50,915 nt of DNA from Alphaproteobacteria bacterium (GTDB lineage Bacteria > Pseudomonadota > Alphaproteobacteria > CAAHEQ01 > UBA3637): positions 1-50,915 of the forward strand of contig JAFTSJ010000001.1 in NCBI GenBank assembly GCA_017467335.1. The letters are read 5' to 3'. The position numbers and the translations under genes were made by a program. This document shows positions 1 to 12,295 of the stretch, piece after piece. Numbering within the stretch: position 1 is the stretch's first letter; each line of letters starts with the position of its first letter. A model generated the notes under the pieces. The model saw only the letters and a program-made list of their open reading frames with translations, did no database searches and was not told the DNA's origin.

Positions 1-2000
1 ACGTAATCAACAACTAATCCACCTTCTTTATCTCTAAACACTCTATTTACACGAGCAATAGCCTGCATCAAATTATGGCCAGACATTGGTTTATAAACAT
101 ACATTGTGGCAAGAGATGGTACATCAAAACCTGTTAACCACATATCAACTACAATAGCGATTTTGAGAGGATCGTTATTATCCTTAAATTTACGAGCCAA
201 TTCGTCTTTATAGTTTTTATTACCAATAATCTCGCGCCAATCCTCCGGATCGTTATTGTCAGAAGTCATAACAACAGCAACTTTTTCTTTCCAAGATGGG
301 CGAAGTTCTAATATTTTACGATAAATTTTAAGTGCAATTGGACGAGAATAAGCTACAACCATTGCCTTACCGGTCAATAAATCAGCACGATTATTTTCAT
401 AGTGATCTAAAATATCAGAAACTAATGAATTGATGGTGTTATCATCACCAAGAATAGTTTCCATTTTTCCAAGCTCACGTTTGCTCTTTTCTATAACTTC
501 AGGATCAGCATTATGAGCCATCAAGTCATACTCGGCATCAATGAGCTTTAATACCTCTGGTTTCAGATGTAATTTAATAACGCGGCTTTCATAATAAACC
601 GGGCGGGTTGCCCCATCTTCCACCGCTTGCGTCATATCATAAACATCAATATAATTCCCAAATACTTCACGAGTATTTTTATCTTTAGAAGAAATCGGTG
701 TGCCGGTAAATCCAATATATGTAGCATTTGGTAAAGAATTACGAATAATACGAGCGGCACCGGTTTTTATCTTACCAGTTGTTGCATCAATTTTTTCAGA
801 CAATCCATATTGACCACGATGAGCCTCATCTGCCATAACAATAATATTGCGACGAGTGGAAAGAGGCTCTTCTGATTCTTCAAATTTTTGCATGGTGGTA
901 AAGAAAATACCATTTGCTTTGATACCATTTAAGAGTTGTTTTAAATGTGCGCGACTTTCTGCTTGTACTGGTGTCTGTCTTAAAAAGTCTTTGCATTTTG
1001 AAAACTGGCCATATAATTGGTCATCTAAATCGTTTCTATCAGTTAAAACAACAATCGTTGGACTATTTAAGGCTTTTTGCAATAATTGAGCATAGAAAAC
1101 CATTGATAAAGATTTACCACTACCTTGTGTATGCCAGAACACACCACCTTTACCATCTGTTTCGGTTGCTTTTTGTGTAGATGCAATCGCTTTTTTAACC
1201 GCAAAGTATTGGTGGTATCCTGCTAAAATCTTAGCAGCTCCTTTTTGCTCATTAGAAAAACAAATAAAGTTTTTTAAGATATCAAGCAAACGTTCTTTTT
1301 CAAAAATACCTTTAAAGAAAGTATCAAATTGAGCATATTGGGTATTTTCATAATTCCCATCAACGGTTTTCCATTCCATGAAACGATCTTCACCGGAAGT
1401 AATAGTGCCAGCTCTTGATTGCAATAAGTCGCTCATAACACAGATTGCATTATAAATGAACATTGAAGGGATTTCATGCTTATAGTTTTGAATTTGGCGA
1501 TAAGCTTCTGAAACATCTGTTTCTTCACGAGAAGGAGATTTTAACTCCATCAAAACCAAAGGAAGACCATTGATAAACAATAAAACATCAGGCCTTTTGT
1601 TGCTGTTTTCAATAAATGTCCATTGATTAGCTACGATAAATGAATTGTTGTTTGGCTTTTCATAATCTATCAAATAAACAATAGTATCTTTAGGTTCACC
1701 TTTTTCTGTATAGTGGACAGTGATACCATTTTGCAGATAATCCATAAAAAGCTTGTTTTTTTGCACCAATTCGGCATTTTCAAAGTTTTTGAGCTTGTAT
1801 AAAGCCTCTTTAATAGCGCTTTCTGGTAATTTAGGATTGATTTTGTAAAGGGCATTAACAAGCACATCTTCATATAATGGAGAATAAAAATCTCTATCCT
1901 CAATATCCGGACCATAGACATGAGTATATCCCATACCTTCAAACAACTCTATAACCGAGTTTTCATAAGCATCTTCATTTGCTGGGTTTGTGTATGTCAT
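1..2000 (-). CDS. hsdR: Type I restriction enzyme R (motor/endonuclease) subunit, 3' end outside window
   Basis: Encodes the ATP-driven translocase and nuclease subunit of a type I restriction-modification complex. The frame is open without interruption from an ATG at 2000 to the window edge, giving 666 codons of a protein usually near 1000 aa. Visible in order: a PD-(D/E)xK nuclease core (PDVLL then ELK, about residues 137-152), Walker A QGSGKS (about 295), DEAH box (about 388) and FTGTP (about 428). The last codons read GGLVVDYV, typical of helicase motif VI and just after. It starts 16 nt after the fic stop, so it is probably cotranscribed with fic. It pairs with HsdM and HsdS encoded upstream. 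The missing C-terminus normally binds the methyltransferase core. Family call is very secure. Confidence 0.95.
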   Translation of the reverse strand, partial: MTYTNPANEDAYENSVIELFEGMGYTHVYGPDIEDRDFYSPLYEDVLVNALYKINPKLPESAIKEALYKLKNFENAELVQKNKLFMDYLQNGITVHYTEKGEPKDTIVYLIDYEKPNNNSFIVANQWTFIENSNKRPDVLLFINGLPLVLMELKSPSREETDVSEAYRQIQNYKHEIPSMFIYNAICVMSDLLQSRAGTITSGEDRFMEWKTVDGNYENTQYAQFDTFFKGIFEKERLLDILKNFICFSNEQKGAAKILAGYHQYFAVKKAIASTQKATETDGKGGVFWHTQGSGKSLSMVFYAQLLQKALNSPTIVVLTDRNDLDDQLYGQFSKCKDFLRQTPVQAESRAHLKQLLNGIKANGIFFTTMQKFEESEEPLSTRRNIIVMADEAHRGQYGLSEKIDATTGKIKTGAARIIRNSLPNATYIGFTGTPISSKDKNTREVFGNYIDVYDMTQAVEDGATRPVYYESRVIKLHLKPEVLKLIDAEYDLMAHNADPEVIEKSKRELGKMETILGDDNTINSLVSDILDHYENNRADLLTGKAMVVAYSRPIALKIYRKILELRPSWKEKVAVVMTSDNNDPEDWREIIGNKNYKDELARKFKDNNDPLKIAIVVDMWLTGFDVPSLATMYVYKPMSGHNLMQAIARVNRVFRDKEGGLVVDY

Positions 2001-2016
2001 GAGTTAGGCTCCTTTA

Positions 2017-3162
2017 TTACTTAAACTCTACAAAATTTTCATTCACTAAACTTTCTAACATACCACGAGTAAGCGCATGTGCATTCAAATTAATAGTATA
2101 TTTTCTAGATTTTTCGCCATCTTTTCTTAACAGATGTTTAGACAACATTTGCTTAATCATATACGTTAGTTGAGCATCATTTTTTTCTTTAAAGACTTCT
2201 TTTAGGTCTTTAACCATTATTGTATAATCTTCTTGTTCTACAGAGCGTTTTAAGACAATATTTTCTTCTTCGCTAATTAAATTGTTATTAAGAGAATAAT
2301 GTATAGCTGGTAAAATAATTTTTGTATCCAAAAACTCTTTGCTCATTAATTTTTTTATTTTTTGGCTTTCTCTCTGTAATCCGTCTAAAACATATAAACA
2401 CCATTCTTTAATATTTTCATCGGTTCCTGTATCAGCCTTTTCTAAACCACTTATATATTTATCTCTGTTCTGGCAAAATACAGCAGCAGGATTTAGAAAA
2501 TACACCTTAAAAAAGCCGTATTGTCTAAGCATTATATAAGTTAACAATCTAGCCATGCGTCCATTGCCATTATCAAATGGGTGGATCCAAACAAAACGGT
2601 GGTGCGCAATAGCTACCTTTAATAAATCGACCTGTCGTGGATCTTTTATAGGATCTTTTCTATTAACGAAACCAATCAAATCAGACATTAACATCGGAAC
2701 TTCTAAAAACTCAGGTGGTTTATGCTGTGAACCAGTTATTTTAACATCATGAGAACGATATGCTCCTGGAACTCTACTTCCTTCACTTGTTAAATCCTTC
2801 ATTAAAACTGAGTGCAACTGTTTTATAAAAAATTCAGATATTTGAAATTTAGGATTGTTCTTAAATTCATCATTAATAAGTTGAATACATTCTTCAATAT
2901 TAGCAATTTCTTTGTGTTGCTGAGAAGTATCTTTCCCCTCTATTTTATCTTGCACATAATCTGCAATAGTTGTATGATTTCCCTCAATTCTTGCAGAAGC
3001 TAAACTCTCCGTAATTCGAAACAAGCTATGTAATTGCGAAAAAGCTGATGGCGGTGTTGAAGCTGCTATTGTTTTTTCGCGCAAATTTTCCAATTCAACT
3101 ATTTTTGTTGTAATAGGGTCAAAAAAATCAATATGAGGAATTTTAAGCTCGGCTGTTTCCAT
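2017..3162 (-). CDS. Fic family protein (probable AMP transferase) inside the type I RM operon
   Basis: Fic enzymes usually transfer AMP from ATP to a hydroxyl side chain of a target protein. The signature HPFDNGNGRMAR lies at residues 196-207 (numbered from an upstream GTG at 3168), with catalytic His and the phosphate-binding loop intact. An inhibitory-helix motif of the [S/T]xxxE[G/N] type, SARIEG, is at 58-63, so this looks like a class II, self-inhibited Fic protein. The C-terminal third resembles a winged-helix domain. I prefer the ATG at 3162 because AGAAAG sits 8 nt before it; the GTG at 3168 is only 2 nt from AGAAAG. The gene lies between hsdS (192 nt upstream) and hsdR (16 nt downstream). 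Fic genes are known neighbours of type I RM loci, but the target is unknown. Fold is certain; enzyme activity and role are inferred. Confidence 0.9.
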   Translation of the reverse strand: METAELKIPHIDFFDPITTKIVELENLREKTIAASTPPSAFSQLHSLFRITESLASARIEGNHTTIADYVQDKIEGKDTSQQHKEIANIEECIQLINDEFKNNPKFQISEFFIKQLHSVLMKDLTSEGSRVPGAYRSHDVKITGSQHKPPEFLEVPMLMSDLIGFVNRKDPIKDPRQVDLLKVAIAHHRFVWIHPFDNGNGRMARLLTYIMLRQYGFFKVYFLNPAAVFCQNRDKYISGLEKADTGTDENIKEWCLYVLDGLQRESQKIKKLMSKEFLDTKIILPAIHYSLNNNLISEEENIVLKRSVEQEDYTIMVKDLKEVFKEKNDAQLTYMIKQMLSKHLLRKDGEKSRKYTINLNAHALTRGMLESLVNENFVEFK

Positions 3163-3291
3163 GATCACAACTTTCTATAAAACAAAAAATCACTATCTGT
3201 AATGATTAAAAATGGTATCTTTAATTATTTTTAATTTTATACGCATTTTCAATGAACTACAAAATATATTTTAACAAAACATCTATAATGT

Positions 3292-3335
3292 AATAAAAAA
3301 TTATCTTAAAATCAATAAAAAATTATCTTAAAATT
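3292..3335. repeat. Tandem duplication of a 22-bp AT-rich unit between hsdS and fic
   Basis: Two adjacent 22-bp copies (3292-3313 and 3314-3335) match at 21 of 22 positions; the unit contains AATTATCTTAAAAT. They lie just downstream of the hsdS stop and upstream of the fic start, so they could be an operator or a slipped-strand duplication. No regulator that would bind them is identifiable. Confidence 0.7.
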
Positions 3336-3360
3336 TCAAAAATATTTTTACGTACCATTT

Positions 3361-4509
3361 CTACTCCTCGGTAAATGATAATTTATCAGCCGAAATGTTA
3401 ACTTTTGAAACATCAATTTCCCCACTCATGAGTTTCGGTAATAACGTATCTCGCAACACTGATAATTTTTCGTTTTCTTGTTCATTAGTTTGTATTTTAT
3501 CAATTATTGCTTTACATGCAGGAGATATTTTATCAAAAATTTCTTTATCAAAAGGAACTTCAAATTTTGCAATATCATTCATTACAATATAAGGAATTGC
3601 AGAACCATGAGTACCGCCCATAAGTTTTTTTTCCAATACCATTTTTAACAAAGGATATAAAAGATAAATATAGTTGCTATTAACCTTTTCTTTTAACGTA
3701 CAAGCATAAGTTCTCTGATATAAATCAAATCTGCCATTATAAAATCTTGTTCTTCCTGTGTATGCTCCATTACCAGATATAATTACAGCTGGGCCATCAT
3801 AAATGTAACTATTGATACTCAAAGCTTCTGGGCCGCAAGTAAAAAACTTATTTACGCCATTTTTATCAAATTCGTTTGCATTTTTTCTTCCTGTGAAAAT
3901 ATTACAAAATTCATCTAAAGGGATAATCGTTTGAAGATTGATAGTATGTTCTTGTATTAGCGCCTGAGCCTGTTGTTCTAAATTATTATTTATCTTATTA
4001 TTCAGTTCAATCTTATCATCCAACGCACCCAACACCTCAGCAATTTTCTTCTGAATATCTATCGGTGGAACCGTAAATTCTAAATTTTTGACCTGTGTTC
4101 CAGATATTTCTGCAAAAGTAGATCCAGAGCCCATACCTATAATGTAATCTATATTATTTTTTAGCAAATAATAGAAAAACTCAGGGCAATATCCATCTTT
4201 TAATATAATACTTTTGAAGCCTTGATTTGTGCAAACATCATTTTCTGCAATGGCTAAATAGCCAATTGGTGCACGACTTGTTAATAATACAGTTCCTTTG
4301 GGTAACATCCGAGCACTACTATTTTGTAATCCTAATTTTGTGATATTTCTTTCACCTCTGGATACATATCGATTATTATAACCGGATAAATCCTTAGGAG
4401 TTAACCATGGTATATCACCATTCCAAAAGTCATAATTTTTGGTGCTAGGGGTGCCTCCACCAATAACTTCACTAATATCACCTAGTTTAATCTTCTGCCA
4501 GTCAGTCAT
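3361..4509 (-). CDS. hsdS: Type I restriction-modification specificity subunit S
   Basis: HsdS provides DNA recognition for both the methyltransferase (M2S) and the restriction complex. At 382 aa it carries two target-recognition domains: TRD1 about residues 5-150 and TRD2 about 195-345. Each is followed by a conserved helix: 152-183 with the EQQAQA signature, and a C-terminal helix ending LLPKLMSGEIDV. The N-terminus WQKIKLGDISEVIGGGTPS is typical. Its ATG overlaps the stop of the upstream membrane-protein gene (ATGA), so translation is coupled to the hsdM operon. The DNA encoding residues 172-183, exactly the junction of the two halves, is a 33-bp perfect inverted copy of sequence at 7716-7748 in an hsdS fragment. 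That suggests past or present recombinational exchange of the second recognition half. Confidence 0.95.
   Translation of the reverse strand: MTDWQKIKLGDISEVIGGGTPSTKNYDFWNGDIPWLTPKDLSGYNNRYVSRGERNITKLGLQNSSARMLPKGTVLLTSRAPIGYLAIAENDVCTNQGFKSIILKDGYCPEFFYYLLKNNIDYIIGMGSGSTFAEISGTQVKNLEFTVPPIDIQKKIAEVLGALDDKIELNNKINNNLEQQAQALIQEHTINLQTIIPLDEFCNIFTGRKNANEFDKNGVNKFFTCGPEALSINSYIYDGPAVIISGNGAYTGRTRFYNGRFDLYQRTYACTLKEKVNSNYIYLLYPLLKMVLEKKLMGGTHGSAIPYIVMNDIAKFEVPFDKEIFDKISPACKAIIDKIQTNEQENEKLSVLRDTLLPKLMSGEIDVSKVNISADKLSFTEE
3962..3994 (-). repeat. 33-bp inverted repeat, copy within hsdS
   Basis: The minus-strand sequence here is identical over 33 bp to plus-strand 7716-7748, so the two copies are in inverted orientation about 3.7 kb apart. 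It encodes INNNLEQQAQA in the central helix between TRD1 and TRD2. Recombination sites of invertible hsdS loci commonly sit in this segment. Confidence 0.9.
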
Positions 4510-5402
4510 CTTGATTCTCCATTATCTTGAACGAAATGAAAACGGCTTTCTCGTGCCTTCATATTATCAGGGATTTCCCCATCATAGTAAATTGTCATTT
4601 CATCCAACTGAAACATAAGTTCCGTTAATCTTTTTGAAACAAGTTGCCTATACTCTTGTAACTTTTCTTCTGGATGCTTATTAATATATTCCATTTTTTC
4701 TACATCTTCTTTTTTGCTTAAATCTGGCTGAATTAACCTAAAAGCAATTGTTGTAATAAATGCTCTACCTATTGTTCCACATTCTTCCAAACAATATTCT
4801 TCTCCCATATTGTCTTTTTTTACCAAGCGATAGTGCATATCTTGATTCTTTAAAAATACACCACTATCCAAAATTGCATTTATATAATATATCGCATCTT
4901 CCATTTTGTATTTTCGAAAGATAATCTGATTTGCATTGTATAAATTATTTAAACGGTTAAGCATTTCAAAATGTTTTAAATAGGTTTTTCTCTTGATAAC
5001 CAGTTGCTCCGGTTTTGGTGTTACATCCTGGTCCGGTGTCATTTTTTGAAAGCGTAAAGGGCTCATTAATGTAAAAAGAAACCAATTAATGGAGTGTTGT
5101 GCATTATATAATGCATCCCTAAATTCCAAAATAATTTTTGCTTCTCTTTGAATATATACATCGTACAGCCATTGTTTTCTTTGAAGATCTAATTGTTGGT
5201 TTAGATTTCGTTGTTCTTGCCGTAGTTGAAGCAAAAATTGCTTATTCTGTTGTTTTATTCCTCTTTTGGAAATACAGTTTGCAATGCACATAATTATGAT
5301 AGTGATAACACCCACAGCAAGTGGACCAAATGCTATAAAGTAATCAAGTAAATCTTTTTCATTTACCACAACCCGCTCAACTGTACAAACCATTGTTTCC
5401 AT
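4506..5402 (-). CDS. Membrane-anchored coiled-coil protein of unknown function in the RM operon
   Basis: I do not recognise a family. The 298-aa product has one hydrophobic segment at about residues 20-43, followed by Lys/Arg, so the rest should be cytoplasmic. A Gln/Leu/Arg-rich stretch (about 48-78) looks like a coiled coil. The remainder is helical and charged, with no catalytic motif that I can see. It starts inside the stop of the preceding 150-aa gene (TAATG) and its stop overlaps the hsdS ATG (ATGA). It therefore sits between hsdM and hsdS in a tightly coupled unit and is very unlikely to be a chance neighbour. It shares an N-terminal TM plus helical cytosolic layout with the gene before it. 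A role tethering or sensing for the RM complex at the membrane is speculation. Confidence 0.8.
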   Translation of the reverse strand: METMVCTVERVVVNEKDLLDYFIAFGPLAVGVITIIIMCIANCISKRGIKQQNKQFLLQLRQEQRNLNQQLDLQRKQWLYDVYIQREAKIILEFRDALYNAQHSINWFLFTLMSPLRFQKMTPDQDVTPKPEQLVIKRKTYLKHFEMLNRLNNLYNANQIIFRKYKMEDAIYYINAILDSGVFLKNQDMHYRLVKKDNMGEEYCLEECGTIGRAFITTIAFRLIQPDLSKKEDVEKMEYINKHPEEKLQEYRQLVSKRLTELMFQLDEMTIYYDGEIPDNMKARESRFHFVQDNGESR

Positions 5403-5854
5403 TATTTTTTATTCTTTCTGTTTAAAATAGATTTGACATTTGCATCAAGGAAAATTTGAGCTAATTCTCCTTTTTTTAACATAAAATCGTAATGACCTAA
5501 ATCTCTGCGTATCATTTTTTCTAAAAAATCCATAGTCATTACAGGTGCTTTATCGCTCATATCCATATTTTGCAATAACTCTTGATATTTGATAAAATCC
5601 TTTATCATTCTAGGTTTTCCCCAAATCAGAATAGCCTTTTTAAATTCTAATAATAGTTGATAACTTTGTTGTAAATTAATCGGTTTACCATGCCGTATAT
5701 CAATGGCTATTTCAATAAAAGAGTTAAGGTATTTTTGATAAACCTCAGCTTTTCTCTCAAAATGCTTATATTCAAGTTCTCTGTTTTTTAAAATCCATTG
5801 GCCAATCAACCAACCAATTCCGGTCAAGCATAAAATGATTATTTCTACACTCAT
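5402..5854 (-). CDS. Small single-pass membrane protein of unknown function in the RM operon
   Basis: Unrecognised 150-aa protein. Residues 3-21 form a hydrophobic anchor (EIIILCLTGIGWLIGQWIL) followed directly by KNRELEYKHFERKAEVYQKY, a basic helical stretch that should lie in the cytoplasm. No enzymatic motif is visible. The start codon is one nucleotide after the hsdM stop, and its own stop overlaps the start of the next membrane-protein gene, so translation of all three is probably coupled. The similar layout of the two membrane proteins suggests a heteromeric pair or diverged paralogues. Alternative explanations include an anti-phage effector or a membrane sensor attached to the restriction system; nothing in the sequence decides between them. 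Confidence 0.8.
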   Translation of the reverse strand: MSVEIIILCLTGIGWLIGQWILKNRELEYKHFERKAEVYQKYLNSFIEIAIDIRHGKPINLQQSYQLLLEFKKAILIWGKPRMIKDFIKYQELLQNMDMSDKAPVMTMDFLEKMIRRDLGHYDFMLKKGELAQIFLDANVKSILNRKNKK

Positions 5855-5855
5855 T

Positions 5856-7364
5856 TCATATCTCCCAACCGATTTGTTTCAGTTTGTCTTTGATTTCTTC
5901 TTGCAAAGCATCAGATTGTTTGAACATGTCAGAAAGCTCTGATGTCAAACGCTTCATCTTATCTTCAAAAGGCTCACCGTCATCTTCTTGTTCTTCAATA
6001 CCAACATAACGCCCTGGGGTTAAGATATAATCTTGAGCTGCGATATCTTGTATTGATGCAACAGAGCAGAAACCTTTGATATCTTCTAATGTTCCTTCTT
6101 GGAAAGCAGTAAATGTATCAGCAATTTTTTTGATATCAGCATCTGTAAAATCGCGATGTTTACGATCTACCATACAACCCATTTTACGGGCATCAATGAA
6201 AACTGTTTTTCCTTTTTGTTGTTTGTTTTTGCTAATAAACCACAAAGTAACAGGAATTGTTACACTATAAAACAATTGCGGTGGAAGAGCGATAATACCT
6301 TCTACCAAATCATCTTCAATAATACGTTTTCTGATTTCACCTTCGCCACTTGTTTGTGTTGAAAGCGCACCATTTGCAAGAACAAGACCAATCTTACCAT
6401 TAGGTGATAAGTGATGTATCATGTGTTGTATCCACGCATAGTTTGCATTTCCTGCTGGTGGAATTCCATATTTCCAACGCACATCATCAAGCAACTTATC
6501 CCGTCCCCAGTTAGAAAGGTTAAAGGGTGGATTTGCCATAATAAAATCAGCCTTTAATTGCGGATGTAAATCATTAAAGAATGTATCTGCTTGATAAGGC
6601 CCAAAATCAGCATCAATTCCTCGAATTGCCATGTTCATTTTTGCCATTTTCCAAGTATCTGCATTTGATTCTTGACCATAAACAGAAATACGATTTCTAT
6701 TTCCACTGTGTGCTTGTAAGAATTTAACCGATTGAACAAACATACCGCCAGAGCCACAAGCTGGGTCATATACGCGACAGTTATCAAAAGGCTTCAATAC
6801 TTCAACAATGGTCTTAACGATACTTTGTGGCGTATAGAATTCACCACCTTTGGTTCCTTCATATGCTGCAAATTGTTGAATGCAGTATTCATAAGTTCTA
6901 CCGAGTAAATCTTTATCCTCATCTGTGCCAGACATATCAATGTTATTGGTAAATAAGTCAACCACATTACCAAGAACTCTCTTATCAAGGTCTTGATTGG
7001 CATAATTTTTAGGGAGAACATTTTTCAAAACTTTATTTTCGGCTTCAATAGCACGCATAGCTTCATCAATCACCATGCCGATTTCTGGAGTATGAGCGGC
7101 GGCAGCAATTGTACTCCAACGTGCTTTTTCTGGAACGAAGAAGATATTCTCTTCAATGTAAGCATCTTTATCGTCCTCAAAACCATCGCCTTCAGCAACT
7201 AACTGGTTATAGCGTTTTTCAAAAGCAAAAGAAATATAACGCAAAAAGATAAGTCCAACAATTACTTTTCTGTAATCTGCAGCAGGAATATGTCCCCAAA
7301 GCTCACAAGCTGCTTCCCAAATTTGTTTTTCAAATCCGATATTTGCATTGTTTTTTCCAGCCAT
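5856..7364 (-). CDS. hsdM: Type I restriction-modification DNA methyltransferase subunit M
   Basis: N6-adenine DNA methyltransferase that modifies host DNA with HsdS and forms the core to which HsdR binds. The 502-aa product has the N-terminal helical HsdM domain (residues 1-140), the SAM-binding motif I YDPACGSGGMFVQ (about 200-212), and the catalytic motif IV NPPF in IMANPPFNLSNW (about 279). Length is normal for the family. The start is set by M-A-G-K at 7364, preceded by an AGAGG element. It is the first gene of the operon; a sigma70-like promoter lies about 60 nt upstream. No truncation or frameshift is seen, so the modification half of the system should work. Confidence 0.97.
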   Translation of the reverse strand: MAGKNNANIGFEKQIWEAACELWGHIPAADYRKVIVGLIFLRYISFAFEKRYNQLVAEGDGFEDDKDAYIEENIFFVPEKARWSTIAAAAHTPEIGMVIDEAMRAIEAENKVLKNVLPKNYANQDLDKRVLGNVVDLFTNNIDMSGTDEDKDLLGRTYEYCIQQFAAYEGTKGGEFYTPQSIVKTIVEVLKPFDNCRVYDPACGSGGMFVQSVKFLQAHSGNRNRISVYGQESNADTWKMAKMNMAIRGIDADFGPYQADTFFNDLHPQLKADFIMANPPFNLSNWGRDKLLDDVRWKYGIPPAGNANYAWIQHMIHHLSPNGKIGLVLANGALSTQTSGEGEIRKRIIEDDLVEGIIALPPQLFYSVTIPVTLWFISKNKQQKGKTVFIDARKMGCMVDRKHRDFTDADIKKIADTFTAFQEGTLEDIKGFCSVASIQDIAAQDYILTPGRYVGIEEQEDDGEPFEDKMKRLTSELSDMFKQSDALQEEIKDKLKQIGWEI

Positions 7365-8150: not shown

Positions 8151-8212
8151 GTCTATTTTTCTTGATTTTTTATGAATTAAAAGATATTCTGATTGAAAAT
8201 CAGGAGGAAAAC

Positions 8213-8647
8213 ATGTCAGGACCGGAAAGATTTAAAGTACCCGTTGGGATTTTCATTATGCTACGCCAAGATGATAAAGTCTTATTACAATTAAGGCAAA
8301 ATTGCTCGTTCAGTGGTTTTTGGGGTTTTGTAGGTGGTCATTTGGATGGGAATGAACAGGTTATATCGGCTGCTATTCGTGAAGCAAAAGAGGAAATAGG
8401 TGTTGATATTCATCCGGACGATTTAATCTTAAAAACCATTTGCCACAGTAATAAAGGCGAAGAGTACCTGCAATTTTATTTTGAATGTTGTAAGTGGTCA
8501 GGTAATATTGAAAACAAAGAACCAAACAAATGTGAACGTTTAGAATGGCATGAATGGAATAATACTCCTAACAACACTTGTCCTTATTTAAAAGAAGCCA
8601 TTTTTAAAATCAATTCAGGAATTTCTTTTTACGAGGATACTTTTTAA
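8213..8647 (+). CDS. Nudix hydrolase
   Basis: Hydrolyses a nucleoside diphosphate linked to another group; the exact substrate cannot be read from the sequence. The Nudix box is complete: G, five residues, E, seven residues, then REAKEEIGV in the segment starting GHLDGNEQ, giving the Mg-binding Glu residues. I choose ATG 8213 (MSGPERFKVPVGIFIM), since AGGAGG precedes it by 5 nt; a longer frame from 8162 lacks such a site. The 144-aa length is normal for a single-domain enzyme. The stop overlaps the start of the pyrophosphatase gene (TAATG), so the two are translationally coupled. Together with that gene it suggests nucleotide-pool cleaning. Confidence 0.9.
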   Translation: MSGPERFKVPVGIFIMLRQDDKVLLQLRQNCSFSGFWGFVGGHLDGNEQVISAAIREAKEEIGVDIHPDDLILKTICHSNKGEEYLQFYFECCKWSGNIENKEPNKCERLEWHEWNNTPNNTCPYLKEAIFKINSGISFYEDTF

Positions 8648-9231
8648 TGCAGAATAAACTTATTTACTTAACGACAAATCCTCATAAAGTTCAAGAAGCC
8701 AATGAATTTCTTGTTAAGAAATATGGGTTTAATTTGGAAATCATGAAACCTTCTTTTGAAGTGCTGGAGATTCAGGCAAAAACTTGTGGTGAGGTTGCTA
8801 AATTTAGCGCTAAATATGCTGCCGAAAAACTTGGTGTTCCGGTTTTAAAATCCGATTCAGGACTTTATATCGAAGCATTGGGCGGTTTGCCAGGACCTTA
8901 TAATGCCTATTTTGACAAGCAAATAGGAACAGAAAAGTTTTTAGATATGATGAAAGATATCCCAAATAGGCATGCTAAATTGGAACATTGTTTTGCCTAT
9001 TGTGAGCCAGGACAAGAACCTATCTTGTTTACAGGGGGAAGCACGGGGCGCATTTCTTATGAAGCCAAAGGAGAGAAAGGGCGTTGGCATGACAAGTTTT
9101 ATATCCCTGATGGGGAAGAAAAAACACTCAGCGAATTACGCGCCATTAACTATGAATATGAAGCACAATTTTGGGGACATGCCCTAGATGATTTTGCCAA
9201 GTGGTATAAGGAAAAATTAGAAAGGAAATGA
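8647..9231 (+). CDS. RdgB/Ham1-like non-canonical purine NTP pyrophosphatase
   Basis: Members of this family convert ITP, dITP or XTP to the monophosphate plus pyrophosphate, keeping deaminated purines out of DNA and RNA. Visible features are the N-terminal LIYLTTNPHKVQEA (Thr/Asn-x-x-K nucleotide grip) and the conserved core SDSGLYIEALGGLPGPYNAY (about residues 69-88). Length is 194 aa, standard. The start overlaps the Nudix stop, and its own end overlaps the MFS gene by 4 nt. It differs from the housekeeping RdgB in several loops, so it may be an accessory paralogue rather than the cell's main enzyme; that is a guess. Confidence 0.88.
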   Translation: MQNKLIYLTTNPHKVQEANEFLVKKYGFNLEIMKPSFEVLEIQAKTCGEVAKFSAKYAAEKLGVPVLKSDSGLYIEALGGLPGPYNAYFDKQIGTEKFLDMMKDIPNRHAKLEHCFAYCEPGQEPILFTGGSTGRISYEAKGEKGRWHDKFYIPDGEEKTLSELRAINYEYEAQFWGHALDDFAKWYKEKLERK

Positions 9232-10445
9232 ATATAATTTCACTTAAATCAGCCCCCAGATGGTTATCCATCGCTTATGCCTTAAAATCGGCATTGTTTT
9301 GCCTGCCGACATTAATGCTTTTTTATGGGTTTAAAGGTGTTGGTATGGGGGATTTTTTCTTGATTCAAGGAATATCAAATCTTACTGTATTTTTTATGGA
9401 AGTTCCAACCGGCTATATCGGTGATTTATTTTCCAGAAAACACACTTTAATTATCGGGGTATTATTTTGGATCTTGGGGCATGTTATTTGGATTTTGGGT
9501 TCAGGATTTTTCATTATTTTACTGGGGGAATTGTTATTTGCATTAGCGATTGCTTTCATTTCCGGCACGGCGGAGGCATATTTATACGATTTACTGAAAA
9601 AACGACATAAAGAAAGTTTATTCCATAAAAAATATGCTAAAATGGAAATGTTAAGTGGAATTGTTTTGATGGTGGCTACGCTGACCGGCGCCTTTATCTA
9701 TCAATTTTGGGGGCCAACTATTCCGTTATACATAACAATTTTCTGTTTAATGTTAAGTGTTGTTATTTTATGGCAATTACCGGATGTTCCCGAATCCAGA
9801 CGTATTGTTGACAAAGATAAAAGCAAATGGCAGGATATTTTGGATATTTCCAAATATGCCGTTAAACATCCTGAAATAAAATGGCTGATGCTTTTACCGG
9901 CGATATATGGAACATTAACACTTATTTTGATGTGGGGATTACAATCCGTTATGGTATTTCATCAATTACCTGTATTTGTTTTTAGTTTGATTTTAGGTGC
10001 AAACGCATTGATGAGAACTTTTTGGTCGGGTATTTCCGGTCGCATTTTGGAAAAAATAAACCTTTCCGGAACCATAAAATTACAAAGTTTAATAATCATC
10101 ATTTCCTCTTTGGGAGCATGTATATCGGCCTATGTTCCGTTATGGGGTGTTTATATGTGTTTGGGCTTGATGATACTCGGATCAGCATCCAGTTCTTTAT
10201 CCAGTATCACAACATCTGTTTTGGTCAATCATAGGGTTCAATCCGATGAACGGGCGACAATTTTATCGGTTAAATCAATGCTGGCAAAAGCATTTCACGG
10301 GATAGGACTTATCTGCTTAAAACCCTTGTTTGACGGGATAGGTGTCGGACCGACCTTTATGGTATCAAGCTTCCTTTTAATTCCGATATTGGTTTGTGCC
10401 AAGCATTTGTATAAGATGAATTTAAGGATAATGAAAGGGGACTGA
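9228..10445 (+). CDS. Major facilitator superfamily transporter
   Basis: A 405-aa integral membrane protein with about 12 hydrophobic segments in two halves. The loop between segments 2 and 3 reads EVPTGYIGDLFSRKHTLIIG, a good match to the MFS signature motif (G-x-x-x-D/R-x-x-G/S-R-R/K). A longer charged loop near residues 190-210 (PESRRIVDKDKSKW) separates the halves. The ATG overlaps the stop of the preceding gene, with AAAGGAAA before it. The substrate is unknown. Being locked in an operon with nucleotide-hydrolysing enzymes, it could export a drug-like or nucleoside compound, but this is inference only. Confidence 0.9.
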   Translation: MNIISLKSAPRWLSIAYALKSALFCLPTLMLFYGFKGVGMGDFFLIQGISNLTVFFMEVPTGYIGDLFSRKHTLIIGVLFWILGHVIWILGSGFFIILLGELLFALAIAFISGTAEAYLYDLLKKRHKESLFHKKYAKMEMLSGIVLMVATLTGAFIYQFWGPTIPLYITIFCLMLSVVILWQLPDVPESRRIVDKDKSKWQDILDISKYAVKHPEIKWLMLLPAIYGTLTLILMWGLQSVMVFHQLPVFVFSLILGANALMRTFWSGISGRILEKINLSGTIKLQSLIIIISSLGACISAYVPLWGVYMCLGLMILGSASSSLSSITTSVLVNHRVQSDERATILSVKSMLAKAFHGIGLICLKPLFDGIGVGPTFMVSSFLLIPILVCAKHLYKMNLRIMKGD

Positions 10446-10446
10446 T

Positions 10447-11328
10447 ATGCTGATACTGAACATTAACGGGCCGATAAATTCCGGAAAAACGACGGTTTCT
10501 AAGATTTTGGTGAACTTGTTGCCGAAAGCCACTTTTATTGAAGTGGATGAGCTGATGAGTGATGCCGAACAAGAAAAACTCGGACTTTCATTAAAAGAAG
10601 GATGGGCAGAACGAAAAAAACGACTGAATGAAAAGTTATTGGCATTAAAAGAAGGTGAAGAGTTTGAAACCGTTATCTTCGCTTATCCGATTACAGAAGA
10701 AAGTTATCAAAAATGGTCTGCTCTATCCGATGAAAACACTCGATTTTTGAACATTACCCTTGCCCCCAGTTTAGAAGAATGTTTAAAAAATCGTGGTACA
10801 CGTGAACTGGACAATTGGGAAAGAAATCGCATTCGGCAAATGTATGAAGAAGGTTATCAAAATCGTTCCTATTCCGATTTTATTATCAACAATGATAATC
10901 AAACACCCGAAGAAACTGCTGAGATTATTAAAGGATTTATAGAACACGTTGTATCCCCAAAACAACAGTGGCTTCATTTAGTTGAAAGGCGTTGGTCGGC
11001 TCTATTGAATGGAGAAAAGACTTCAACACTTCGCTTGAACGAAGGTTTTATTCATAAGGGCTTTTTGGTTTATAAAGACTGTCCGAAAGAACAATGGGCA
11101 GAGGTGGTTTATGTGACAGGGGTCTATTATCTGCCCTTAAAACGGGCTTTGGAAACAGACGGTTTTGATGAACACACGCCGGATGTAGAAACAGGCCTTA
11201 AACAAATGCGGGTTCATTATCCGGATATAACACTAGATACACCGATTTTATTGGCAAAACATTTAAGTATTCCCGAGACAAAGAAACTTTATCCAAACGA
11301 AGTAAAGGAGATTTTGAAGAATGCCTAA
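10447..11328 (+). CDS. P-loop kinase-like protein fused to an ASCH-like domain
   Basis: Residues 1-165 form a small P-loop NTPase: Walker A GPINSGKTT (8-16), an acidic VDE at 33-35 and a lid-like segment with RGTRELDNWERNRIR (116-130). This layout is that of shikimate/gluconate-kinase-type enzymes. From about residue 175 a second domain begins WLHLVERRWSALLNGEKTST and has the pattern expected of an ASCH domain (RNA- or nucleotide-binding beta-barrel). The fusion hints at phosphorylation or recognition of a nucleotide or RNA-linked substrate. The gene starts one base after the MFS stop and its last 8 nt overlap the next gene. The kinase-like half is secure; the ASCH assignment is moderate, and substrate is unknown. 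Confidence 0.75.
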   Translation: MLILNINGPINSGKTTVSKILVNLLPKATFIEVDELMSDAEQEKLGLSLKEGWAERKKRLNEKLLALKEGEEFETVIFAYPITEESYQKWSALSDENTRFLNITLAPSLEECLKNRGTRELDNWERNRIRQMYEEGYQNRSYSDFIINNDNQTPEETAEIIKGFIEHVVSPKQQWLHLVERRWSALLNGEKTSTLRLNEGFIHKGFLVYKDCPKEQWAEVVYVTGVYYLPLKRALETDGFDEHTPDVETGLKQMRVHYPDITLDTPILLAKHLSIPETKKLYPNEVKEILKNA

Positions 11329-11803
11329 AATTTATATTTCGGGTGGACCGGGGAGTGGCAAAACCACCTATGCCAAAAAATTATCGCAAGAATTAAATAT
11401 ACCTTGTTTTGATTTAGATGAGGTTAAGTGGATTAATCGCCCGAATGCATTTAATCTGCGCCGTCCTAAAGAAGAAAGATTAGCCTTGTTAAACCAAATT
11501 TTATCTGAAAATAAAGATTGGATTTTAGAAGGTGTTTATTTTCAAGATTGGATTATACCCGTTATTGAACAAGCCGATAAAGTCATAATTTTAAAACCGC
11601 CCCGCCGACTAAGGCAGTTCCGAATAATAAAACGTTCTCTCTGCCGTATGTTTCATGTTGAGCCTAAAAAGCACCGTGAAAATCCGATTACGCTTTTTCG
11701 TCTTTTACGGTGGAGCCATGAATACGAAAAGAAATATCTACCCATTTTATTAGAGAAAACGAAAAAAGAAAACAAAATTGTTGAAATGATAGAAAGCATT
11801 TAA
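11321..11803 (+). CDS. AAA/adenylate-kinase-like P-loop protein (FlaR/topology-modulation type)
   Basis: A 160-aa small NTPase with Walker A GGPGSGKTTYAKKL (residues 8-21), an Asp pair in FDLDEVKW (about 35-42) and a basic region RRLRQFRIIKRSLCR in the lid. Proteins with this layout are often annotated as 'DNA topology modulation protein FlaR', a name with little biochemical support; they resemble nucleoside or shikimate kinases. The ATG lies inside the end of the P-loop/ASCH gene (8-nt overlap), so the two kinases are coupled and may act together. Its substrate cannot be predicted. Confidence 0.85.
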   Translation: MPKIYISGGPGSGKTTYAKKLSQELNIPCFDLDEVKWINRPNAFNLRRPKEERLALLNQILSENKDWILEGVYFQDWIIPVIEQADKVIILKPPRRLRQFRIIKRSLCRMFHVEPKKHRENPITLFRLLRWSHEYEKKYLPILLEKTKKENKIVEMIESI

Positions 11804-11807
11804 TTTT

Positions 11808-11836
11808 TTGACTTTCTTTTAAAGATGTTTTATAAT
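11808..11836 (+). promoter_or_regulatory. Near-consensus sigma70 promoter for the second Nudix gene
   Basis: TTGACT (11808-11813) and TATAAT (11831-11836) are separated by 17 nt, only one base from consensus, ending about 20 nt before the Nudix start. The second Nudix gene can thus be transcribed independently of the operon before it. Confidence 0.8.
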
Positions 11837-11857
11837 TTAGGCTAAACGGAGGAAATG

Positions 11858-12295
11858 ATGTCTGAACGGGTCAAGTTCAATGCCACTGTCAGTTTTGTTT
11901 TGGAGCAAGACGATAAAATCTTACTGTTCTATCGGACGGATGGTTATTTTAAAGATGGGTGGTGGGTATTGCCGGCCGGCCATATAGAAGAAAATGAAAC
12001 CGCTACTCAAGCTATTGTCCGAGAAGCCAAAGAAGAATTGGGAATTGATGTGGGTATCAATGATGTTGAGTTTGCTCACATTGTTCATAATTTGGTCGGT
12101 GAAAACAAACGGATGGATTTGTATTTCCTTATAAAAGATTTTAAAGGTGAATTGCAAAATCTGGAACCGTCTAAATGTACCGATATGCAATTTTTTAGCA
12201 AGGATAAATTGCCATTTGAAAAAATCGCTCCAACCACATTGCAGGCTTTGCAAAGTATTTGGAATAAAAAACATTATTCAGAAAGACAAGAATAA
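11858..12295 (+). CDS. Nudix hydrolase
   Basis: A second Nudix enzyme of this block, about 145 aa. The Nudix box begins GHIEENETATQAIVREAKEE and is followed by LGIDV; all four catalytic acidic positions are present. Two in-frame ATGs occur at 11855 and 11858; the second is preferred because GGAGG lies 5 nt before it and only 2 nt before the first. It has its own strong promoter at 11808-11836. The end converges with the acetyltransferase gene on the other strand with only 6 nt between them. Substrate unknown; the N-terminal VSFVLEQDDKILLFYRTD is typical of MutT-like members. Confidence 0.9.
   Translation: MSERVKFNATVSFVLEQDDKILLFYRTDGYFKDGWWVLPAGHIEENETATQAIVREAKEELGIDVGINDVEFAHIVHNLVGENKRMDLYFLIKDFKGELQNLEPSKCTDMQFFSKDKLPFEKIAPTTLQALQSIWNKKHYSERQE

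What the first reader, a model, noticed from the sequence alone, without database searches (positions are those of the whole stretch)
2017..3162. Self-inhibited Fic AMPylase embedded between hsdS and hsdR
The Fic motif HPFDNGNGRMAR and the inhibitory SARIEG motif are both intact. Position directly before hsdR (16 nt) suggests it could modify the restriction subunit or a host target when restriction is triggered, like a toxin kept silent. Combined with the two membrane proteins this makes a six-gene composite defence locus.
Basis: partly seen in the sequence, partly recalled or inferred. Interest (0 to 1): 0.6.

Follow-up and report, generated by a model that had tools for sequence, protein, structure and literature searches.

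The report
Fic enzyme positioned to control restriction
A bacterial enzyme gene that can chemically tag proteins sits directly in front of the DNA-cutting gene of a type I restriction system, behind a promoter region carrying six regularly spaced copies of what looks like the enzyme's own DNA-binding site, so it probably also acts as the switch that sets how much cutting enzyme is made.

Summary
The Fic gene is real (2017-3162, minus strand, 381 aa), intact, and lies between hsdS and hsdR, 16 nt before hsdR. It belongs to a rare Fic-plus-winged-helix subfamily. The only experimentally characterised relative found is CccR, a toxin that AMPylates FtsZ and represses its own promoter. The subfamily has HPFxNGNGR instead of HPFx(D/E)GNGR. 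The three alphaproteobacterial-type members sampled, window included, sit directly before a near-identical hsdR and form one clade. A spirochaete carries the same arrangement with a different RM system. Two sister RM operons lack fic, so it is optional. Most members elsewhere have no RM genes nearby, and an HsdR target is untested. The unexpected part is the promoter. The 198-nt gap before fic carries two triads of TTNNAGATA at exact 22-bp spacing. All four hsdR-linked loci have 22-bp repeats, and 19 of 25 subfamily members have their strongest repeat at 22-23 bp or its multiples, against 2 of 26 other Fic genes. CccR's footprinted half-site contains AGATA. Only fic-bearing operons have a gap there; sister operons pack hsdR tightly. 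Most likely Fic represses a fic-hsdR transcript, like a type II C protein, while keeping a latent AMPylase activity. Operator function is inferred. New variant of known kinds.

The parts
2017..3162 (-). fic: 381-aa class II Fic protein with C-terminal winged helix, CccR-like subfamily (Fic motif HPFDNGNGRMAR, inhibitory motif SARIEG)
   Evidence: Pfam Fic 67.8 bits; 7XUX (CccR) phmmer E 2e-100; model pLDDT 82, TM 0.88 and 43% identity to 7XUX over the whole length
3163..3360 (-). 198-nt AT-rich gap before fic; putative promoter/operator region of a fic-hsdR transcription unit
   Evidence: gaps of 148-231 nt precede fic in 4 of 4 hsdR-linked loci; other junctions mostly -44 to +18 nt
3280..3332 (-). 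distal operator triad: TTTAAGATA 3332-3324, TTTAAGATA 3310-3302, TTATAGATG 3288-3280, exact 22-bp spacing
   Evidence: best lag 22, 0 of 300 shuffles; 3310 is the top-scoring site of the whole window with a matrix built without the window
3172..3224 (-). proximal operator triad: TTAAAGATA 3224-3216, TTACAGATA 3202-3194, TTATAGAAA 3180-3172, exact 22-bp spacing, 64 bp from the distal triad, ending about 10 nt before the fic start
   Evidence: same positions relative to the start codon (-62/-40/-18) as in G308 (-61/-39/-17)
3323..3358 (-). remnant of a deleted gene: MVRKNIFEILR-stop, start of the ~290-aa 'RKNIFEIL' protein that lies between hsdS and fic or hsdR in sister operons
   Evidence: 31 nt at 90% identity to G308, 24 nt at 92% to G017, in the same place 2 nt after the hsdS stop
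3..2000 (-). hsdR, first 666 codons (cut by the contig end)
   Evidence: TIGR00348 608 bits, HSDR_N, SWI2_SNF2
2001..2016 (-). 16-nt fic-hsdR junction with AAAGGAG ahead of the hsdR start
3361..4509 (-). hsdS
   Evidence: Methylase_S 159 bits
4506..5402 (-). orfB, 298 aa, one N-terminal hydrophobic segment, no family; accessory slot
   Evidence: no match
5402..5854 (-). orfA, 150 aa, one N-terminal hydrophobic segment, no family; accessory slot
   Evidence: no match
5856..7364 (-). hsdM, 502 aa
   Evidence: N6_Mtase 367 bits, HsdM_N 82.7 bits

Best explanation
The Fic protein is a two-part enzyme-regulator encoded as the first gene of a separate fic-hsdR transcription unit inside a type I RM operon. 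Its C-terminal winged helix binds direct repeats (TTNNAGATA, two triads at 22-bp spacing) in its own promoter and represses fic and hsdR together. This sets and buffers the level of the cutting subunit independently of hsdM-hsdS, much as C proteins control the endonuclease gene of type II systems. Its N-terminal Fic domain stays self-inhibited by SARIEG, and on release AMPylates a still unknown target (possibly including itself), giving either an abortive, growth-arresting output or a change in repression. Shown here: gene order, gap, repeat array and its conservation, the clade, optionality, fold. Inferred: that Fic binds the repeats, that it represses, and that hsdR is read from this promoter. 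Unknown: AMPylation target and trigger.
For: The fold matches CccR (7XUX) over the whole chain, including the DNA-binding domain. CccR is a shown autorepressor whose footprinted half-site is AGATAATCAT (PMC9755527). In the window lag 22 ranks 1 of 61, reached by 0 of 300 dinucleotide shuffles; no other 198-nt piece of the window (0 of 839) reaches a lag-22 score of 18 (gap 22.7). Lag 22 is also best in G325, G308 and the spirochaete L036. Subfamily-wide, the best lag is 22/23, 44/45 or 64-67 in 19 of 25 upstream regions (binomial p 2.5e-12) against 2 of 26 other Fic genes. The motif is phased in 13 of 25 against 0 of 26. The best site in 50.9 kb with a window-free matrix lies in the gap. Fic-to-hsdR gaps are 16, 45, 11 and 1 nt; gaps before fic are 198, 148, 231 and 151 nt; in fic-less sister operons hsdR follows at -4 and +4 nt.
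Against: No binding or transcription data. CccR's operator is described as an inverted pair with a 26-bp spacer, not a 22-bp direct array, and that arrangement is not found here above chance. The promoter scan finds no more sites than shuffles (26 against 23.1). G325 and L036 keep the 22-bp spacing but not the exact core motif. The motif was chosen after seeing the data. An upstream hsdM promoter could also read through into fic-hsdR. The repeats also occur before stand-alone fic genes, so autoregulation may predate and be unrelated to hsdR control.
Confidence: 0.6

Rival explanations
1. Stowaway toxin: fic is an autonomous abortive-infection or addiction toxin (CccR/SoFic-like) that uses the RM operon as a landing site. 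Its operators serve only its own repression, and reading into hsdR is incidental.
For: 20 of 26 tree rows have no RM genes nearby; the same slot holds other cargo in relatives: RKNIFEIL, Trypco2-like, DUF3800; DarTG2 is embedded between hsdS and hsdR in an E. coli island (PMC12255303); SoFic-type class II Fic proteins are reported as abortive anti-phage toxins (PMC12249575); several members carry stops or frameshifts.
Against: In two unrelated RM types fic is placed directly before hsdR with 1-45 nt between them, and the clade of this class has kept that position while its sequence diverged to 45-50%. A mere landing site would not predict this.
Confidence: 0.27
2. One reading: Fic AMPylates HsdR (or an RM subunit) to switch restriction on or off.
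For: Adjacency and co-orientation with hsdR in four loci.
Against: Fic diverges far more than HsdR (45-50% against 82-87%); sister operons keep an open hsdR without Fic (G017, G1284); most subfamily members have no hsdR nearby; no complex was predicted or tested.
Confidence: 0.08
3. The protein targets the division protein FtsZ as CccR does.
For: Closest solved relative, with FtsZ Thr8 as mapped target (PMC9755527).
Against: Host FtsZ lacks the Thr8 position (N-terminus ...EFLLTPNIGVIG against MFEPMELTNDAVIKVIG in a CccR-clade genome); the paper says Thr8 is conserved only in Enterobacteriaceae.
Confidence: 0.05

Closest known systems
CccR (Yersinia pseudotuberculosis, PDB 7XUX)
   Same: Whole-length fold (TM 0.88, 43% identity), class II SARIEG motif, HPFxNGNGR motif, C-terminal HTH; AGATA core shared between CccR's footprinted half-site and the repeats here
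   Different: CccR is described in a T6SS gene cluster; the relatives from the same phylum outside the class checked here (L049-L054) are mostly not RM-linked; its operator is an inverted pair with a 26-bp spacer; its target residue FtsZ Thr8 is absent from this host
SoFic / class II Fic anti-phage toxins (PADLOC SoFic)
   Same: Class II Fic with C-terminal winged helix; PADLOC SoFic profile 166 bits
   Different: Scores 49 bits against a cut-off of 550 on NCBIfam's SoFic model; different Fic motif residue (N for D); no evident AS1-like gene (not searched for directly)
C (controller) proteins of type II RM systems, and HsdC of Mollicutes type I systems
   Same: Gene directly upstream of the endonuclease gene (type II C proteins), repeats in its own promoter, HTH
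   Different: C proteins are small cI-like HTH proteins with no enzymatic domain; here a Fic enzyme carries the DNA-binding domain
RptR-RMS-DarTG-M48 island (EPEC)
   Same: Type I RM with a toxin embedded between hsdS and hsdR; repression through three direct repeats
   Different: Separate 9-kDa repressor in front of hsdM, and a toxin-antitoxin pair; here one protein may do both and stands before hsdR only

Membership tests
[quoted passage not shown]
   HPFDNGNGRMAR: all positions met except D/E, which is N; N in all 29 subfamily members and in active CccR
Class II Fic (AMPylase) | Inhibitory (S/T)xxxE(G/N) motif N-terminal to the Fic motif | tested here: met
   SARIEG at residues 56-61; E60 and G61 invariant in A1
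Class II Fic (AMPylase) | AMP transferase activity | not testable with these tools
   needs an assay
CccR-like Fic | Whole-length homology including C-terminal HTH | tested here: met
CccR-like Fic | Autorepression through promoter repeats | tested here: inconclusive
   phased TTNNAGATA repeats found; the exact CccR operator arrangement is not found
CccR-like Fic | Target residue FtsZ Thr8 present in the host | tested here: not met
SoFic (NCBIfam equivalog NF046030) | Score over curated cut-off | tested here: not met
   49.1 against 550 bits
Controller (C) protein of RM systems | Gene directly upstream of the endonuclease gene, co-oriented | tested here: met
   gaps of 16, 45, 11 and 1 nt in four loci
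Controller (C) protein of RM systems | Repeats in its own promoter | tested here: met
   (computational only)
Controller (C) protein of RM systems | Small cI-like HTH protein | tested here: not met
   381-aa Fic enzyme with winged helix
Type I RM system | hsdM, hsdS and hsdR together | tested here: met
   hsdR cut by the contig end

The most novel reading that the evidence does not exclude
An AMPylating enzyme is the transcriptional controller of a type I restriction subunit: Fic's catalytic state (self-inhibited, active or auto-AMPylated) gates its binding to the 22-bp repeat array, so a phage or cell signal sensed by the enzyme directly changes hsdR transcription while also releasing a toxin.
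Probability: 0.25. Interest if true: 0.8.

Novelty: new variant of a known kind. Interest (0 to 1): 0.55.

Why it matters
The biological role of most class II Fic proteins is unknown. A conserved, easily recognised operator architecture (two triads at 22-bp spacing) gives a testable handle on a whole Fic subfamily. If fic-hsdR is one autorepressed unit, it offers type I restriction an enzyme-controller in the place that type II systems fill with C proteins, and links restriction dose to a latent toxin.

Tried and rejected
CccR's exact operator (AGATAATCAT-N26-ATGATAATCT) was scored upstream of all members: not above shuffles in the window, so the repeat argument rests on the array itself. FtsZ Thr8 as target: host residue absent. 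Membership of SoFic proper: far below cut-off. Phage origin: no match in phage records at E 1e-30. Plasmids: three records only, none showing RM genes in the two annotated stretches read (the plasmid gene table is incomplete). Homology of the window gap to an intact RKNIFEIL gene: only its first ten codons remain. orfA, orfB, RKNIFEIL: no Pfam family. Promoter scan not above chance. Literature: no paper found on a Fic protein inside hsd operons.

Full report
Observation. The reported gene is there. Window 2017-3162 (minus strand) encodes a 381-aa Fic protein with no stops, matching Pfam Fic at 67.8 bits. SARIEG is at residues 56-61 and HPFDNGNGRMAR at 194-205. The acid normally found at the fifth motif position is Asn; this is true of all 29 subfamily sequences extracted, while 12 Fic proteins outside it have Asp. 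CccR shares this Asn and is an active AMPylase (PMC9755527), so activity is plausible but not shown. On the minus strand the order is hsdM, orfA, orfB, hsdS, a 198-nt gap, fic, 16 nt, hsdR. HsdR is cut because the window begins at base 1 of its contig.

What the protein is. The best solved relative is 7XUX, phmmer E 2e-100, which is CccR of Yersinia pseudotuberculosis. CccR AMPylates FtsZ at Thr8 in E. coli and represses its own gene through a C-terminal HTH (PMC9755527). A model built from eight subfamily members (mean pLDDT 82) superposes on 7XUX over the full chain, TM 0.88, 43% identity, including the C-terminal winged helix. The host's FtsZ lacks the Thr8 position, so the same target is unlikely. 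The protein is not SoFic by NCBIfam's own cut-off (49 against 550 bits).

Distribution. The subfamily is rare: 3 clear members in 385 genomes of the class, 6 more in the phylum sample, 9 of 277 and 1 of 218 in two other phyla. The class is not named by the tools; I take it to be Alphaproteobacteria from gene content. The three members in the class (window, G325, G308) all stand directly before an hsdR; the other two are 82-87% identical to the window's. They form one clade with 100/100 support although the Fic proteins are only 45-50% identical. A spirochaetal locus (L036) has hsdM-hsdS-fic, followed after 1 nt by a 1140-aa ORF in the hsdR position that is unlike the window's HsdR; I read it as a different type of HsdR from its N-terminal sequence and position, without a family search. 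Its Fic lies elsewhere in the tree, so the hsdR association arose at least twice or was lost repeatedly. Two more members lie near RM genes (L053, L079). The other 20 of 26 tree rows have none in the fetched flanks, though some of those flanks are short.

Optional cargo. Two sister operons found by HsdM/HsdR searches, G017 and G1284, have no fic. Between hsdS and hsdR they carry instead a ~290-aa 'RKNIFEIL' protein (G017) or a small protein weakly like Trypco2 (G1284). G308 carries RKNIFEIL, Trypco2-like and fic together, and G325 RKNIFEIL and fic. The window keeps a remnant of RKNIFEIL (MVRKNIFEILR-stop, 3358-3323) exactly where the intact gene starts in the relatives, with 90-92% DNA identity over 24-31 nt. 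So the earlier order here was probably hsdS-RKNIFEIL-fic-hsdR. The genes between hsdM and hsdS also differ in each locus. 'Six-gene composite defence locus' is therefore better read as an RM core with swappable cargo.

The gap and its repeats. In all four loci where fic directly precedes hsdR, a gap of 148-231 nt lies before fic, while fic-to-hsdR is 1-45 nt and other junctions are mostly -44 to +18 nt. The fic-less sisters have -4 and +4 nt before hsdR. The window gap holds TTTAAGATA, TTTAAGATA, TTATAGATG at exact 22-bp steps and, 64 bp further, TTAAAGATA, TTACAGATA, TTATAGAAA at exact 22-bp steps, ending about 10 nt from the fic start. Lag 22 is the best of 61 lags in the window, G325, G308 and L036, and at that lag none of 300 dinucleotide shuffles reached the observed score in any of them. 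Outside the gap, 0 of 839 window pieces of the same length reach a lag-22 score of 18 (gap 22.7). Across 25 subfamily upstream regions, 19 have their best lag at 22/23, 44/45 or 64-67 (binomial p 2.5e-12); among 26 other Fic genes, 2 do. TTGTAGATA-like sites occur phased in 13 of 25 against 0 of 26. With a matrix built without the window, the top site of both strands of the whole window is at 3310-3302, inside the gap. The window fits the two-triad model at 40 of 42 positions, and G308 shares the proximal positions (-61/-39/-17 against -62/-40/-18). CccR's footprinted half-site AGATAATCAT contains the AGATA core, but its inverted, 26-bp-spaced layout is not seen here. G325 and L036 keep the spacing with a different core, as expected if site and protein change together; that is an inference.

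Mechanism. The simplest reading is that the winged helix binds these repeats and represses a fic-hsdR unit, leaving hsdM-hsdS to its own promoter. [quoted passage not shown] in Mollicutes an HsdC binds direct repeats before type I hsd operons (PMC5282649); and RptR represses a type I island through three direct repeats, with DarTG2 lying between hsdS and hsdR (PMC12255303). What is different here is that the candidate regulator is itself a latent AMPylase. The main rival is a self-contained toxin that merely lodges in the RM operon. The tight, repeated placement before hsdR argues against that, but only promoter mapping and binding assays can decide.

Limits. No expression or binding data exist; the motif was defined after the repeats were seen, though it was tested on other members and on a window-free matrix. 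Flanks are of unequal length. Samples are one genome per species. HsdR was not tested as a Fic target, and no Fic-HsdR complex was predicted.

Noticed in passing
upstream regions of 26 Fic genes outside the subfamily (loci L004-L032, L038 second Fic, L042, L055): Their best repeat spacing clusters at 38-44 bp (12 of 26), which suggests another phased operator type for other Fic-winged-helix classes.
   Followed up: no
L043, L045, L046 (between hsdS and hsdR or fic); remnant at window 3323-3358: A ~290-aa protein starting M(T/A)RKNIFEILE(E/S)KY, no Pfam family, recurs between hsdS and hsdR in sister type I RM operons; conserved C-terminal half (HHASLKG, HNNK, ELYQLLLFCVL).
   Followed up: partly
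L046 and L080, between hsdS and fic or hsdR: A 104-112 aa protein weakly like Trypco2 (PF19631, E 0.011) inside type I RM operons.
   Followed up: partly
L056 (Lactococcus plasmid pUC073A): HsdR 73% and HsdM 70% identical to those of this locus, a likely cross-phylum transfer; DUF3800 sits in the slot before hsdR there.
   Followed up: no
L041, L048, G689:C73, G808:C96: Several subfamily fic genes are broken by stops or frameshifts, as expected of a costly or dispensable gene.
   Followed up: no
L038, L039 and L051: Subfamily fic genes lie beside gene pairs that look, by eye, like AbiEi/AbiEii defence pairs; L039 is on a conjugative-looking element.
   Followed up: no
window 8162-12295, plus strand: A cluster of NUDIX, HAM1-like, MFS and nucleotide-binding kinase-like genes beside the RM locus (read by eye from the translations), oriented the other way.
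   Followed up: no
L080: In G1284 the RM operon lies directly downstream of what reads as ftsA-ftsZ (about 350 nt).
   Followed up: no
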